Source: Micromonospora sp. C31
GTDB taxonomy: Bacteria > Actinomycetota > Actinomycetes > Mycobacteriales > Micromonosporaceae
Assembly (NCBI RefSeq): GCF_018070575.1
Contig: NZ_JAGPXN010000001.1
Coordinates: 434,001-498,000, forward strand
Length of the DNA: 64,000 nucleotides
Reading direction: 5' to 3'
This document shows positions 58,599 to 61,409 of the stretch, piece after piece. Position 1 is the first letter of the stretch. Every line of letters begins with the position of its first letter. The notes below the pieces were generated by a model, which saw nothing but the letters and a program-made list of their open reading frames with translations, searched no databases and was not told the origin of the DNA. The position numbers and the translations under genes are program-made.

Positions 58599-59423
58599 TC
58601 ACCGCGCCGCCGCGGTGATCCCCCCGCGTGGTCGGGCGACGTCGTCCTGCACCGCCGGGGCGTATCCCTCGGCGGCGCTGACCTTGCGCGCGATGATGCC
58701 CAGCAGCACGCCGTACACGACCTTCGAGGTGATGTCGGCCACCGTGTAGGTGATCTGTCGCGCCACCACCCCGTCGGCGGAGTCCCACATCGCCGGCATC
58801 AGGTAGGCGCCCGGATAGAGCATCCAGGAGACCAGCACCAACCACCAGACGGCCCGCGCGACGCCCCGGGCGGACTCCGGCAGCCGGGCCAGGCTGCCGA
58901 AGATCACCCGGGCCACCAGGACGAGCAGGAACAGGAAGAACGCCGTGCTGACCAGGCCCCAGACCCAGTACGGAGCCGAGCGGTCCGCCTCGTAGAACTG
59001 CCCGGCGTAGCCGGTGTAGATCATCGCGAGGCCACCGACCACGAACATCACCCAGGTGCGGTGGAACGCCCGGCCGGTGACCCCCAGCACGATGAGCAGC
59101 TGGATCAGCAGGACCGGTACGTCGATGGACCAGTTCATGTACCGGTAGCCGTTGGAGAAGAGCACGTCGGTCTGGACGTAGGCCGTCCCGTTCCACGCGA
59201 ACGCCTGGCTCCAGCGTTCCGAGAGCACCCACAGCTCGAAGAAGGCCGACACCATCACCACGGCGGAGAGCACCGAGGCGAGCTGGTAGCGCGGTGCGCC
59301 CGAGCCCCGCGTCGCGAGGAAGTAGACCAGCCCGGCAGCCATCACCGCGAAGCCCACCGTGAGCACGTGCGACACCAGCGTGTACTGGATGACGTTGTAG
59401 ACGAACAGGTTCTCCACGTTCAT
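58599..59423 (-). CDS. NDQ-type microbial rhodopsin, predicted light-driven sodium pump
   Basis: This 274-residue, seven-helix retinal protein closely resembles the sodium pump KR2. Helix C reads GYRYMNWSIDVPVLLIQ, giving Asn97, Asp101 and Gln108 where KR2 has Asn112, Asp116 and Gln123. Arg94, the helix G counter-ion Asp230 and Schiff-base Lys234 (ADITSK) are present, as are GQFYE, SWMLYPGAYLMP and GVVARQ. KR2's Asn61 position is Ser50, and one extra residue sits between the Asp102-like Asp86 and helix C. ATG 59423 has GAGGG just upstream and matches the KR2 start. It is divergent from a second rhodopsin. Confidence 0.93.
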   Translation of the reverse strand: MNVENLFVYNVIQYTLVSHVLTVGFAVMAAGLVYFLATRGSGAPRYQLASVLSAVVMVSAFFELWVLSERWSQAFAWNGTAYVQTDVLFSNGYRYMNWSIDVPVLLIQLLIVLGVTGRAFHRTWVMFVVGGLAMIYTGYAGQFYEADRSAPYWVWGLVSTAFFLFLLVLVARVIFGSLARLPESARGVARAVWWLVLVSWMLYPGAYLMPAMWDSADGVVARQITYTVADITSKVVYGVLLGIIARKVSAAEGYAPAVQDDVARPRGGITAAAR

Positions 59424-59626
59424 GGCGCCCTCACGGCTTTCCGTAGCGAAACCGAAGCTATCGGCGATATAAGACTTTTGCCGCGTATAGGTTATCTGTG
59501 CCGACCGGCACCGGGCTGCCGAACGAGATCTCCAGCCGACGCCGGCGACGGACACCACGGCGTCGACCGCCCGGGTAGGCGGAAAAGGGCTGCACGGCGC
59601 CTTCCGGAACCGGGCCGAGGAGTGGC
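59424..59626. promoter_or_regulatory. Shared divergent promoter region of the two rhodopsins
   Basis: This 203-base stretch has an AT-rich core unlike its surroundings (59455-59500). It contains the palindrome TATCG-G-CGATA at 59459-59469, and TTATAT on the minus strand (59472-59467) that could be the -10 box of the sodium-pump gene. TATAGGTTATCT at 59486-59497 may serve the plus-strand gene. One operator could control both. No regulator gene is adjacent. Confidence 0.45.
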
Positions 59627-60325
59627 ATGACCGAGTGGTGGTTGTGGATGTACGTCGCCGCCATGGCGGGCGGGGTCGTGGTGTTCACACGGTGGCGCGC
59701 GGACCCCCGGGGAGTGCCGCCCAGCGAGTACCGGGTGGCGATCGCCATCCCGCTCTGGTCCGGCCTCTGGTACCTGGTGCTGGCGCTGGGCGGCGGGCGG
59801 GCCGAGGTGGCCGGCCACACGGTCTACTGGGCGCGCTACGCCGACTGGGTGGTCACCGCCTCCCTGCTGCTGGTGGCCCTGGTGCTGACCGCGACGCACG
59901 CCCTGCCCGGGCGCTGCTGGCGGCTGATGGGGGCCCTCGTCGGGGCGAACGTGGTGATGATCCTCAGCGGCCTGGCCGCCGACCTCATGGCGGACCTCAC
60001 GGCCCGCTACACCCTGTACGCGATCGGAGTGGTGGCCCTCCTCGCGGTCTACGGCCTGATCTGGGGACCGCTGCGCACCCACGCGCACCGCCAGCCGGAG
60101 CGGATCGCGGCCGTCTACACAGAGGCCGCACTGCTGCTCAGCGTGCTCTGGGCGGGCTACCCCGTGTTCTGGGTCCTCGGCCCGTCCGGAGTGGGACTGC
60201 TCGGTTCCGACACCACCAGCCTGCTCCTCGTCGTGCTCTCCATCCTGTCGAAGGTGGGCTGGAGCATCCTCGACCTCGGCCGGCTACGCGCCCTGTCCGA
60301 CCGTGGTCAGCTCGCCGTCGTCTGA
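59627..60325 (+). CDS. Xenorhodopsin / Anabaena-sensory-rhodopsin-like protein
   Basis: This 232-residue, seven-helix protein aligns by eye almost end to end with Anabaena sensory rhodopsin (NPRGVP-like DPRGVP, IPLWSGLWYL, SGLAADL, GYPVFWVLGPSG, SKVGWSILDL). Helix C is RYADWVVTASLLLVA: counter-ion Asp73, Thr77, and Ala84 at the donor site. Lys209 binds retinal. Asp216, seven residues on, matches the cytoplasmic acceptor of inward proton pumps. The helix C Pro is Ser79, and the residue four before Lys (Pro in the Anabaena protein, Asp in others) is Ser205. Predicted inward proton pump or photosensor. Confidence 0.9.
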   Translation: MTEWWLWMYVAAMAGGVVVFTRWRADPRGVPPSEYRVAIAIPLWSGLWYLVLALGGGRAEVAGHTVYWARYADWVVTASLLLVALVLTATHALPGRCWRLMGALVGANVVMILSGLAADLMADLTARYTLYAIGVVALLAVYGLIWGPLRTHAHRQPERIAAVYTEAALLLSVLWAGYPVFWVLGPSGVGLLGSDTTSLLLVVLSILSKVGWSILDLGRLRALSDRGQLAVV

Positions 60326-61409
60326 CCCGGTCACCGGGGCCGACCCTCCGGTGCCCGGGTCGGGCGGCCGGACCCGACGGCCGCCGTCGCACCCGACCGG
60401 CGCGGCGGGGGGACCGGGAAGACCGGACCGGCTGCTGCGGTCCGTGGGGACCGCCTCGCAGCTCGCGCTGGGCGGGCTGCTGGCGCTGTCGCCGCTGCTC
60501 GACGCCACCGGGCTGGGCGGCTCGCCGGCCGTCCTGGTCGCGGGGCTGCTGCTCGGGCTCCCGCACGGCGCGGTCGACCACCTCGTGCCCGCCTGGCTGT
60601 CGGCGCGCGCCCGACCGCTGCCGGCCCGCCTGGCGCTCCTGGTGGGCTACACCGCCGTGGCCGGTGCCGGACTGGCGGCCTTCCGGGCCGCGCCGGACCT
60701 GGCACTGGTCGGGTTCCTCATCGTGTCGGTCGTCCACTTCGGCACCGCCGACGTGGCGTTCCACGCCGAGCGGGACGGCCGGCCGGTGCGGACGGGGGTG
60801 ACCGCCACGCTCGCGTACGGAGGACCGCCGGTCGTCGTTCCGCTGGCGCTGTGGCGGGACCAGGTCGACCCGTTGCTGGCGACGGTGGCACCACGGGCGC
60901 CGGCGCTGCTCACCGTCGAGGTGCGGGCGCTGGCGTTGGCCGTCGTGCTGTGCGCGGTAGCGGTCACCGCGATCCGGGACGTCCGCGCCGGACGCGCCCG
61001 CGACGCCGTCGGGCCGCTGCTGCTCACCGGACTGTTCGGCACCGTGCCACCGGCCCTGGCCGTCGGGGCGTACTTCGCGCTCTGGCACTCCTGCCGCCAC
61101 GTCGCCCGGTTGCTGCGGCACGACCCGCGCAACACCGCCGACCTGGCGGCCGGACGCATCGGACGGCCGCTGCGTCGCTTCGCCCGGCAGGCGGCGGCTC
61201 CCACGGTGCTCGCCGTCGCCGCCCTGACCGCCCTGGTCACCTGGCCCGGCCATCGGGCGGACCCGCTGCCCGCGACGGTTGCCGTGCTGGCCGCGCTGAC
61301 CCTCCCGCACGCGGTGCTGGTCGCCTGGACGGACCGGCGTGGGTCGGGGCCCCCGCGCCGGTCCGGTGGCGGGCTGCTCCCCCGCCGCAAGACCCGGAGC
61401 CACGGTTGA
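60303..61409 (+). CDS. blh: Brp/Blh-family beta-carotene 15,15'-dioxygenase (retinal synthesis)
   Basis: This integral membrane enzyme of up to 368 residues would cleave beta-carotene to two retinals. His-rich family motifs are spread through the helices: GLPHGAVDHLV, VVHFGTADV, WHSCRHVARLL and LTLPHAVLVAW, which supply the iron ligands. The gene overlaps the xenorhodopsin gene by 23 bases, so chromophore and apoprotein are co-expressed. The exact start is uncertain: GTG 60303 gives a Pro-rich 45-residue tail without a clear ribosome site, and a later GTG before the first helix is possible. Confidence 0.9.
   Translation: MVSSPSSDPVTGADPPVPGSGGRTRRPPSHPTGAAGGPGRPDRLLRSVGTASQLALGGLLALSPLLDATGLGGSPAVLVAGLLLGLPHGAVDHLVPAWLSARARPLPARLALLVGYTAVAGAGLAAFRAAPDLALVGFLIVSVVHFGTADVAFHAERDGRPVRTGVTATLAYGGPPVVVPLALWRDQVDPLLATVAPRAPALLTVEVRALALAVVLCAVAVTAIRDVRAGRARDAVGPLLLTGLFGTVPPALAVGAYFALWHSCRHVARLLRHDPRNTADLAAGRIGRPLRRFARQAAAPTVLAVAALTALVTWPGHRADPLPATVAVLAALTLPHAVLVAWTDRRGSGPPRRSGGGLLPRRKTRSHG

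What the first reader, a model, noticed from the sequence alone, without database searches (positions are those of the whole stretch)
58599..61409. Two-rhodopsin cassette with its own retinal synthase in an actinomycete
A predicted outward sodium pump (NDQ motif) and a predicted xenorhodopsin are divergent from one 203-base control region, and blh overlaps the second gene. Established knowledge: KR2-type proteins export sodium in light, characterised xenorhodopsins import protons, and Blh makes retinal. Inference: if both pump, light would drive sodium out and protons in, a near charge-balanced light-powered Na+/H+ exchange. That could matter for pH or salt stress in a soil or marine actinomycete. 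Alternatively the second protein is a sensor controlling use of the first. I know of no described pairing like this in Micromonosporaceae.
Basis: partly seen in the sequence, partly recalled or inferred. Interest (0 to 1): 0.95.

Follow-up and report, generated by a model that had tools for sequence, protein, structure and literature searches.

The report
Two-rhodopsin light-driven ion-exchange cassette
A Micromonospora-like actinomycete carries side by side a rhodopsin predicted to pump sodium out in light, a second predicted to pump protons in, and the enzyme that likely makes their retinal; this trio recurs in related species, so it would give a testable job to the puzzling inward proton pumps.

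Summary
At 58599-61409 lie an NDQ rhodopsin, a 203-base gap, a xenorhodopsin-clade rhodopsin and an overlapping blh. P0001 sits in the NDQ clade (100/99) with the Na+-pump residues and the extra Glu of the ErNaR subgroup. P0002 sits in the ASR/BcXeR clade (100/99) with counterion Asp, cytoplasmic acceptor Asp and its Glu partner, but Ser205 replaces the usual Pro and Asn108 an Asp that PoXeR needs for full pumping.

Of 151 genus genomes, 23 have rhodopsins and 14 this divergent pair. The site, a guaA-GMC gap, is empty in 24 of 30 loci examined. The three genes diverge in step with each other, much less with their neighbours. The genome has no ASRT or MCP match.

Best reading: oppositely directed pumps sharing one retinal supply, together a light-driven Na+-out/H+-in exchange (inferred). 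Against an obligate partnership: 6 of 22 xenorhodopsin genomes lack the sodium pump.

It is not wholly unknown: Parvularcula oceani has both types; a Micromonospora NaR gave small photocurrents in 2017; a 2018 survey listed "proteorhodopsin" and "SRII" in Micromonospora. My searches found no description of the linked cassette.

The parts
58599..59423 (-). NDQ rhodopsin (predicted light-driven outward Na+ pump), P0001, 274 aa; E63, R94, N97, D101, Q108, D230, K234
   Evidence: Pfam PF01036; NDQ clade 100/99; residues counted over 121 sequences; AF2 pLDDT 94.1
59424..59626 (.). 203-nt divergent intergenic region
   Evidence: no sigma-70-type consensus promoter found; a TATAGG element shared by 4 of 12 intergenic regions examined
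59627..60325 (+). xenorhodopsin-clade rhodopsin (predicted inward H+ pump), P0002, 232 aa; E34, D73, T77, A84, N108, S205, K209, D216
   Evidence: XeR clade with ASR and BcXeR 100/99; residues counted over 120 sequences; AF2 pLDDT 95.5; best fold match BcXeR 7zmy, rmsd 1.0, 43% identity
60303..61409 (+). blh, predicted beta-carotene 15,15'-dioxygenase, overlapping the XeR gene by 23 nt
   Evidence: PF15461 and TIGR03753; an in-frame candidate blh start at -23 or -4 relative to the XeR stop in 23 of 24 XeR-blh loci
56999..58552 (-). guaA (GMP synthase), conserved left neighbour of the site, not part of the cassette
61428..63284 (-). GMC-family (cholesterol-oxidase-like) oxidoreductase, conserved right neighbour, not part of the cassette
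   Evidence: (below the NCBIfam cholesterol-oxidase cut-off)

Best explanation
The locus is a three-gene cassette whose two divergent rhodopsins, predicted to be an outward Na+ pump and an inward H+ pump, would together drive a light-powered Na+-out/H+-in exchange with retinal likely supplied by the Blh enzyme encoded behind the second gene. Shown by sequence: the clades and key residues of both rhodopsins, the overlapping XeR-blh pair, the recurrence of the trio, and no match to known rhodopsin transducers in the genome. Inferred: transport direction, co-expression, and the net effect. Each pump would relieve the voltage built up by the other, so that light would lower cytoplasmic Na+ and pH together, as a Na+/H+ antiporter does, without spending the proton motive force. 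The extra Glu63 puts the Na+ pump in the ErNaR subgroup, whose studied member keeps pumping Na+ in acid; such a pump would suit a neighbour that brings protons in. That Glu is common in other homologues too (104 of 121), so it is no proof of a partnership.
For: P0001 is in the NDQ clade 100/99, with N, D, Q, second Asp, Lys, Arg and two Ser in 121 of 121 sequences and the Glu in 104 of 121. P0002 is in the XeR clade 100/99; counterion Asp 120 of 120, acceptor Asp 119 of 120, its Glu partner 116 of 120, and no acidic second counterion (Pro 84, Ser 35, Thr 1). In PoXeR the matching D216 and E35, and in NsXeR D220, are needed for full inward pumping (passages of PMC5118547 and PMC8518763). Top fold matches are the inward pump BcXeR, then ASR. 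The divergent pair is in 14 of 151 genus genomes; 16 of 17 NaR genomes also have XeR (Fisher p 8e-16, not corrected for kinship). In 3 of the 14 pairs the XeR has the canonical Pro and Asp. Distances among 11 loci: NaR-XeR rho 0.74, XeR-blh 0.85, NaR-blh 0.79, against NaR-guaA 0.07 and XeR-guaA 0.39. The blh of the paired loci belongs to the XeR-linked blh lineage, 100/99, not to NaR-linked ones, so both opsins would depend on one retinal source. No ASRT and no MCPsignal match. crtB, crtE-like and crtI genes and a lycopene-cyclase-like gene are in the genome.
Against: No transport, expression or retinal data. P0002 has Ser205 for the xenorhodopsin Pro, Ser79 for the helix-C Pro, and Asn108 where Pro-type xenorhodopsins have Asp (83 of 84; Asn in 29 of 35 Ser-type); by numbering offset this is PoXeR D108, whose Asn mutant pumped less (PMC5118547), and the sensor ASR also has no acid there. 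6 of 22 XeR genomes in the genus sample have no NaR, 1 of 17 NaR genomes has no XeR, and two genomes carry them at separate sites. The best Foldseek match of P0001 is the chloride pump NM-R3, ahead of ErNaR and KR2, although its motif is NDQ. XeR evolves about twice as fast as NaR (mean distance 0.333 against 0.169). In-step divergence can come from linkage alone. The PoXeR authors thought inward pumping unlikely to serve bioenergetics. The lycopene cyclase is below the NCBIfam cut-off (89.8 against 209.5).
Confidence: 0.36

Rival explanations
1. The two rhodopsins are linked only because they share one retinal supply and perhaps common control; the sodium pump would energise the membrane, and the xenorhodopsin would do an unrelated job.
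For: Paired loci have one blh, of the XeR-linked lineage. XeR-blh occurs without NaR, and NaR with its own blh without XeR, so each module can stand alone. In other families of the order, 6 of 8 NaR genomes whose loci I fetched have a blh beside the NaR.
Against: 16 of 17 NaR genomes in the genus keep XeR, including two where the genes are not linked, which shared retinal supply alone does not ask for.
Confidence: 0.31
2. The xenorhodopsin is a light sensor (Anabaena sensory rhodopsin-like) that would set the use of the sodium pump through an unknown partner.
For: ASR is the best PDB sequence match (176 bits). Divergent placement fits a regulator. XeR evolves faster and sometimes stands alone. 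The Asn108/Ser205 change of this lineage hints at altered function, and ASR too lacks the Asp at the 108 position.
Against: No ASRT (PF07100) and no MCPsignal (PF00015) match in the genome. No long C-terminal tail: 16 residues follow D216. Best fold match is the inward pump BcXeR. Acceptor Asp kept in 26 of 26 and Glu partner in 23 of 26 family XeRs examined.
Confidence: 0.25
3. The opsins would act without light, for instance as lipid scramblases or structural membrane proteins.
For: Scramblase activity of opsins has been proposed (title and start of abstract of PMC12805836 in a search listing).
Against: blh is kept beside them in 14 of 14 paired loci, and the retinal Lys and counterions are conserved.
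Confidence: 0.04

Closest known systems
ErNaR / Subgroup 2 of NDQ light-driven sodium pumps (PMC11006869, passages read)
   Same: NDQ motif, second Asp, and Glu at the KR2-L74/ErNaR-E64 position; same fold.
   Different: 40-41% identity to ErNaR in the Foldseek rows; actinobacterial lineage; divergent from a xenorhodopsin and without a blh of its own beside it.
NaR of Micromonospora sp. CNB394 (PMC5531490, passages read; WP_018784639.1)
   Same: NDQ sodium pump of the same genus; gave 1-2 pA photocurrents in ND7/23 cells.
   Different: Its sequence was not in hand, so identity, Glu63 and gene neighbours were not compared.
PoXeR, NsXeR and BcXeR inward proton pumps
   Same: Same clade as BcXeR and ASR, counterion Asp, cytoplasmic acceptor Asp, no acidic second counterion; BcXeR is the top fold match. 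PoXeR and NsXeR were not in the tree.
   Different: Ser instead of Pro at the BR-D212 position, Asn instead of Asp at the PoXeR-D108 position, Ser instead of the helix-C Pro, DTA motif; linked to a sodium pump and to blh.
Parvularcula oceani PoNaR + PoClR + PoXeR (PMC5118547, passages read)
   Same: NDQ and xenorhodopsin in one genome.
   Different: A chloride pump is present as well; gene linkage was not stated in the passages read.
'Proteorhodopsin' and 'SRII' genes of Micromonospora type strains (PMC5765111, passages read)
   Same: Same genus; proteorhodopsin listed in nine strains, SRII in four of them; the named strains include M. marina and M. mirobrigensis, which hold this cassette.
   Different: Annotation labels only in those passages; no NDQ, xenorhodopsin, pair or cassette described.

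Membership tests
NDQ light-driven sodium pump (NaR) | N-D-Q in helix C (KR2 N112, D116, Q123) | tested here: met
   N97, D101, Q108
NDQ light-driven sodium pump (NaR) | second Asp and retinal Lys in helix G (KR2 D251, K255; numbers recalled) | tested here: met
   D230, K234; 121 of 121
NDQ light-driven sodium pump (NaR) | placement in the NDQ clade | tested here: met
   100/99; the chloride pump chain 5g2c also falls inside this clade
NDQ light-driven sodium pump (NaR) | light-driven Na+ export | not testable with these tools
   needs expression and flux assay
NDQ Subgroup 2 (ErNaR) | Glu at the KR2-L74 position | tested here: met
   E63; also in 17 of 17 genus NaRs
Xenorhodopsin | placement with ASR and a characterised inward pump | tested here: met
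   100/99 with ASR and BcXeR
Xenorhodopsin | single counterion Asp, neutral residue at BR D212 | tested here: met
   D73; S205
Xenorhodopsin | that neutral residue is proline | tested here: not met
   Ser205; Pro in 84, Ser in 35, Thr in 1 of 120 sequences: a variant lineage inside the clade
Xenorhodopsin inward pump | cytoplasmic acceptor Asp and Glu partner (PoXeR D216, E35) | tested here: met
   D216, E34
Xenorhodopsin inward pump | Asp at the PoXeR D108 position, needed for full pumping | tested here: not met
   Asn108; position matched by numbering offset through ASR, PoXeR sequence not in hand
Xenorhodopsin inward pump | light-driven inward H+ transport | not testable with these tools
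   needs expression and flux assay
ASR-type sensory rhodopsin | ASRT transducer in the genome | tested here: not met
   0 PF07100 matches in G000
ASR-type sensory rhodopsin | long Arg-rich C-terminus | tested here: not met
   protein ends 16 residues after D216
Archaeal-type sensory rhodopsin with Htr transducer | MCP-type transducer | tested here: not met
   0 PF00015 matches in G000
Brp/Blh beta-carotene dioxygenase | full-length family match above the curated cut-off | tested here: met
   PF15461 positions 2-266 of 267; TIGR03753 167.8 against 95.25
Brp/Blh beta-carotene dioxygenase | metal-binding histidines and retinal formation | not tested
   PHGxxDH is present, but no residue-level comparison or assay was made

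The most novel reading that the evidence does not exclude
A mobile, self-sufficient light-driven Na+/H+ exchanger made of two rhodopsins: an acid-tolerant outward Na+ pump and an inward H+ pump run against each other in one membrane and share one retinal synthase, giving Micromonospora sunlit salt and alkali tolerance and giving inward proton pumps a physiological role.
Probability: 0.19. Interest if true: 0.85.

Novelty: new variant of a known kind. Interest (0 to 1): 0.55.

Why it matters
What inward proton pumps are for is open; the PoXeR authors had no culture of the native cells and suggested signalling (PMC5118547, passages). Here the xenorhodopsin gene is tied to a sodium pump and a retinal synthase in a genus with many cultured type strains, with natural relatives that have both, one or neither, so the question can be tested by gene removal and light. 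It also provides a xenorhodopsin lineage in which two positions, Pro to Ser and Asp to Asn, change together, useful for testing what sets pump direction and strength.

Tried and rejected
Sensor reading: searched the own genome for ASRT and MCPsignal, none found; not excluded, and raised again by Asn108. Shared promoter or light operator: the sigma-70-type scan found nothing; k-mers shared with the crtB-crtE gap and the region before the B12-type regulator were 8-9 letters, not convincing. In the intergenic comparison the G149 start was misread by my pattern, so its 759-base 'gap' is an artefact, and G094 and G050 dropped out (12 of 14 pairs used). One search counted a spurious weak guaA match in G094 and ended in an error after printing; its correlations and mean distances were discarded and redone with 11 genomes, while its dN/dS values are kept. 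Pairing outside the family: of 396 phylum genomes, 41 have matches over the cut-off, and none besides the own genome showed two neighbouring full rhodopsin genes (judged from coordinates). Of 54 order genomes outside the genus over the cut-off I classified loci of only 27, and not every second rhodopsin of these: sodium pumps and proton-pump-like (DTE-type) rhodopsins, no xenorhodopsin; one (G962) has two such pumps side by side, each with blh. The rho values and the Fisher test are not corrected for shared ancestry.

I lowered the exchange reading (0.42 to 0.36) and the novel case (0.22 to 0.19) and raised the sensor rival (0.20 to 0.25) and the shared-retinal rival (0.30 to 0.31).

Literature: 10 full-text searches were answered. 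One paper in the held library has both 'xenorhodopsin' and 'micromonospora', a fluorescence review that lists the Micromonospora NaR (PMC10743670, passages). Most subscription papers are not held, for example Tarlachkov 2020 on Geodermatophilaceae rhodopsins, seen only in reference lists.
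Full report
Observation. The window holds, at the stated coordinates, two bacteriorhodopsin-family genes and a blh gene. The NDQ gene is on the minus strand (58599-59423), the second rhodopsin on the plus strand (59627-60325), with 203 bases between the starts, and blh (60303-61409) overlaps the second gene by 23 bases. The longer NDQ ORF that begins at 59558 is not supported by relatives, which start at [M/V]N[V/F]EN. 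The assembly has no further PF01036 match. The nearest named relatives are Micromonospora proteins, so I take the organism to be a Micromonospora; its own name is not given.

First rhodopsin. P0001 lies in the NDQ clade with support 100/99. Arg, Asn, Asp, Gln, the second Asp, the retinal Lys and two Ser are invariant in 121 sequences, and Glu63 is shared by 104 of 121. That Glu defines Subgroup 2 of the sodium pumps, whose studied member ErNaR pumps Na+ with little pH dependence (PMC11006869, passages). All 17 NaRs of the genus sample carry it. The predicted structure (pLDDT 94.1) matches NM-R3, ErNaR and KR2. The first hit is a chloride pump of NTQ type, so the fold alone does not decide the ion; the motif points to sodium. 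A sodium pump from Micromonospora sp. CNB394 gave small photocurrents of 1-2 pA in mammalian cells (PMC5531490, passages).

Second rhodopsin. P0002 lies in one clade with ASR and BcXeR, 100/99. The predicted structure (pLDDT 95.5) is closest to the inward pump BcXeR (rmsd 1.0, 43% identity), then to ASR. The counterion Asp (D73), cytoplasmic acceptor Asp (D216) and its Glu partner (E34) are kept in 120, 119 and 116 of 120 sequences. In PoXeR, D216N and changes of E35 significantly reduce inward pumping (PMC5118547, passages); in NsXeR, D220N abolishes it (PMC8518763, passages).

A variant lineage. The position of BR D212, Pro in 84 of 120, is Ser here and in 35 of 120. The helix-C Pro is Ser in 13 of 120 including P0002. 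The position that by numbering offset is PoXeR D108 is Asp in 83 of 84 Pro-type sequences but Asn in 29 of 35 Ser-type ones, P0002 included; D108N lowered pumping in PoXeR, and ASR has Gln there. In 26 XeRs of Micromonosporaceae the two positions switch together: Asp with Pro in 4, a non-acid with Ser or Thr in 22, no mixture. Of the 14 paired loci, 11 have the Asn-Ser type and 3 the Asp-Pro type. The single-counterion feature held to set inward direction is kept, but the lineage may pump more weakly or differently, so I file P0002 as a variant lineage inside the xenorhodopsin clade. The protein ends 16 residues after D216, and the genome has no ASRT and no MCPsignal match.

Retinal supply. 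Blh is full length and above the curated cut-off. The genome has crtB, a crtE-like synthase and crtI together on one contig, near a MerR regulator with B12-binding domains (LitR/CarH-like; these names are recalled), and a lycopene-cyclase-like gene on another contig. The cyclase scores under the NCBIfam cut-off (89.8 against 209.5), so the beta-carotene step is likely rather than certain.

Distribution. In 151 genus genomes, 23 have rhodopsins over the cut-off. By layout, 17 have NaR, 22 have XeR and 16 both; 14 of these 16 have the divergent NaR / XeR-blh arrangement, and two (G007, G100) carry the genes at separate sites. Six have XeR without NaR, one has NaR without XeR. M. mirobrigensis, M. 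maritima and M. marina are named holders. Contig lengths (equal, or 100 bases apart) suggest M. siamensis, M. coxensis, M. halophytica, M. citrea and a Plantactinospora strain as further holders of both genes. In the family sample, 19 of 300 genomes are over the cut-off, five of them outside the genus; three of these have XeR-blh and no NaR, and the other two are borderline matches (24.5-24.6 bits) that I did not follow. In the phylum sample (41 of 396 over the cut-off) no other genome showed two neighbouring full rhodopsin genes.

Site and assembly. Of the 14 pairs, 11 sit between guaA and a GMC oxidoreductase gene. That GMC gene was found in 58 of 61 genus genomes; of the 30 loci returned, 24 have guaA next to it with no rhodopsin or blh match (gaps 70-1,071 bases) and 6 hold the cassette or part of it. 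At the same site some genomes have XeR-blh only (four, one of them from the family sample) or XeR only (two). The four XeR-blh-only loci are nested among paired ones in the XeR tree, on branches of moderate support, which fits loss of NaR. The blh of paired loci groups with XeR-linked blh (100/99), not with the NaR-linked blh of Micromonospora or of other families of the order. So the cassette looks like a sodium-pump gene joined to an existing XeR-blh pair. An in-frame candidate blh start at -23 or -4 relative to the XeR stop is found in 23 of 24 XeR-blh loci, which suggests translational coupling.

Do the parts belong together? Over 11 loci, pairwise protein distances agree among the three genes (rho 0.74, 0.79, 0.85) and much less with guaA (0.07-0.39) or GMC (0.37-0.43). 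The cassette thus seems to be exchanged or inherited as a block, apart from its flanks. This fits a working unit, but linkage alone could also give it. Both opsins are under purifying selection, NaR more strongly in most pairs (dN/dS 0.11-0.26 against 0.14-0.50, seven pairs).

Mechanism. If both proteins work as their clades and main residues predict, and if both are present in one membrane, light would move Na+ out and H+ in, with largely cancelling charge. That would lower cytoplasmic Na+ and pH without using the proton motive force, useful in salt and alkali. Direction, co-expression and benefit are all inferred. The main rival is that the link only reflects a shared retinal supply; the second is that the variant xenorhodopsin senses light through an unknown partner. 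The XeR-only genomes show that XeR can be useful without the sodium pump; the near absence of NaR without XeR (1 of 17) is what the exchange reading predicts, though kinship is not removed.

Known and new. NDQ plus xenorhodopsin in one genome was reported for Parvularcula oceani (PMC5118547, passages). Rhodopsin genes in Micromonospora were listed in 2018 as proteorhodopsin and SRII (PMC5765111, passages). Xenorhodopsin next to Na+/H+ antiporter genes was noted in Nanohaloarchaea (PMC3198991, passages). I found no description of the linked NaR / XeR-blh cassette in ten searches of the held library.

Verdict. A real, recurrent and selected cassette; a new variant of known kinds, with a testable and unproven exchange function.

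Noticed in passing
L193:10353-11303 (G000:C15): MerR regulator with B12-binding domains close to crtB/crtE/crtI, resembling LitR/CarH light sensors (names recalled); carotenoid and so retinal supply may be light-controlled through B12.
   Followed up: partly
window 59948-59950 and 60239-60241 (XeR codons 108 and 205): Two xenorhodopsin positions, Asp to Asn and Pro to Ser, change together across the family: a coupled switch of unknown effect.
   Followed up: partly
L246:6013-11370 (G962, same order, other family): Two tandem pairs, NDQ rhodopsin-blh and DTE-type rhodopsin-blh, side by side: a different two-pump combination with two blh genes.
   Followed up: partly
L038, L040, L044 (G007, G100, G106): NaR divergent from a blh of a distinct lineage, without XeR between them; the blh forms its own clade, 100/100.
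   Followed up: partly
L032 and L039 (G007, G100): XeR alone at the guaA-GMC site, without NaR or blh there; NaR and blh lie elsewhere in these genomes.
   Followed up: partly
window 59424-59626 and matching gaps: TATAGG element shared by 4 of 12 intergenic regions (G000, G085, G095, G131), and a different TTACSGTA element in G149, G034, G097 and G023; possible lineage-specific promoters.
   Followed up: no
L045, L046, L150, L152-L154: A separate XeR clade (100/100) with XeR-blh and no NaR, at other sites and in other Micromonosporaceae genera; three of its six members also lack the Glu partner.
   Followed up: partly
window 33835-38469: Long ORF (1,544 aa) with only a C-terminal 5'-nucleotidase domain recognised by Pfam.
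   Followed up: no
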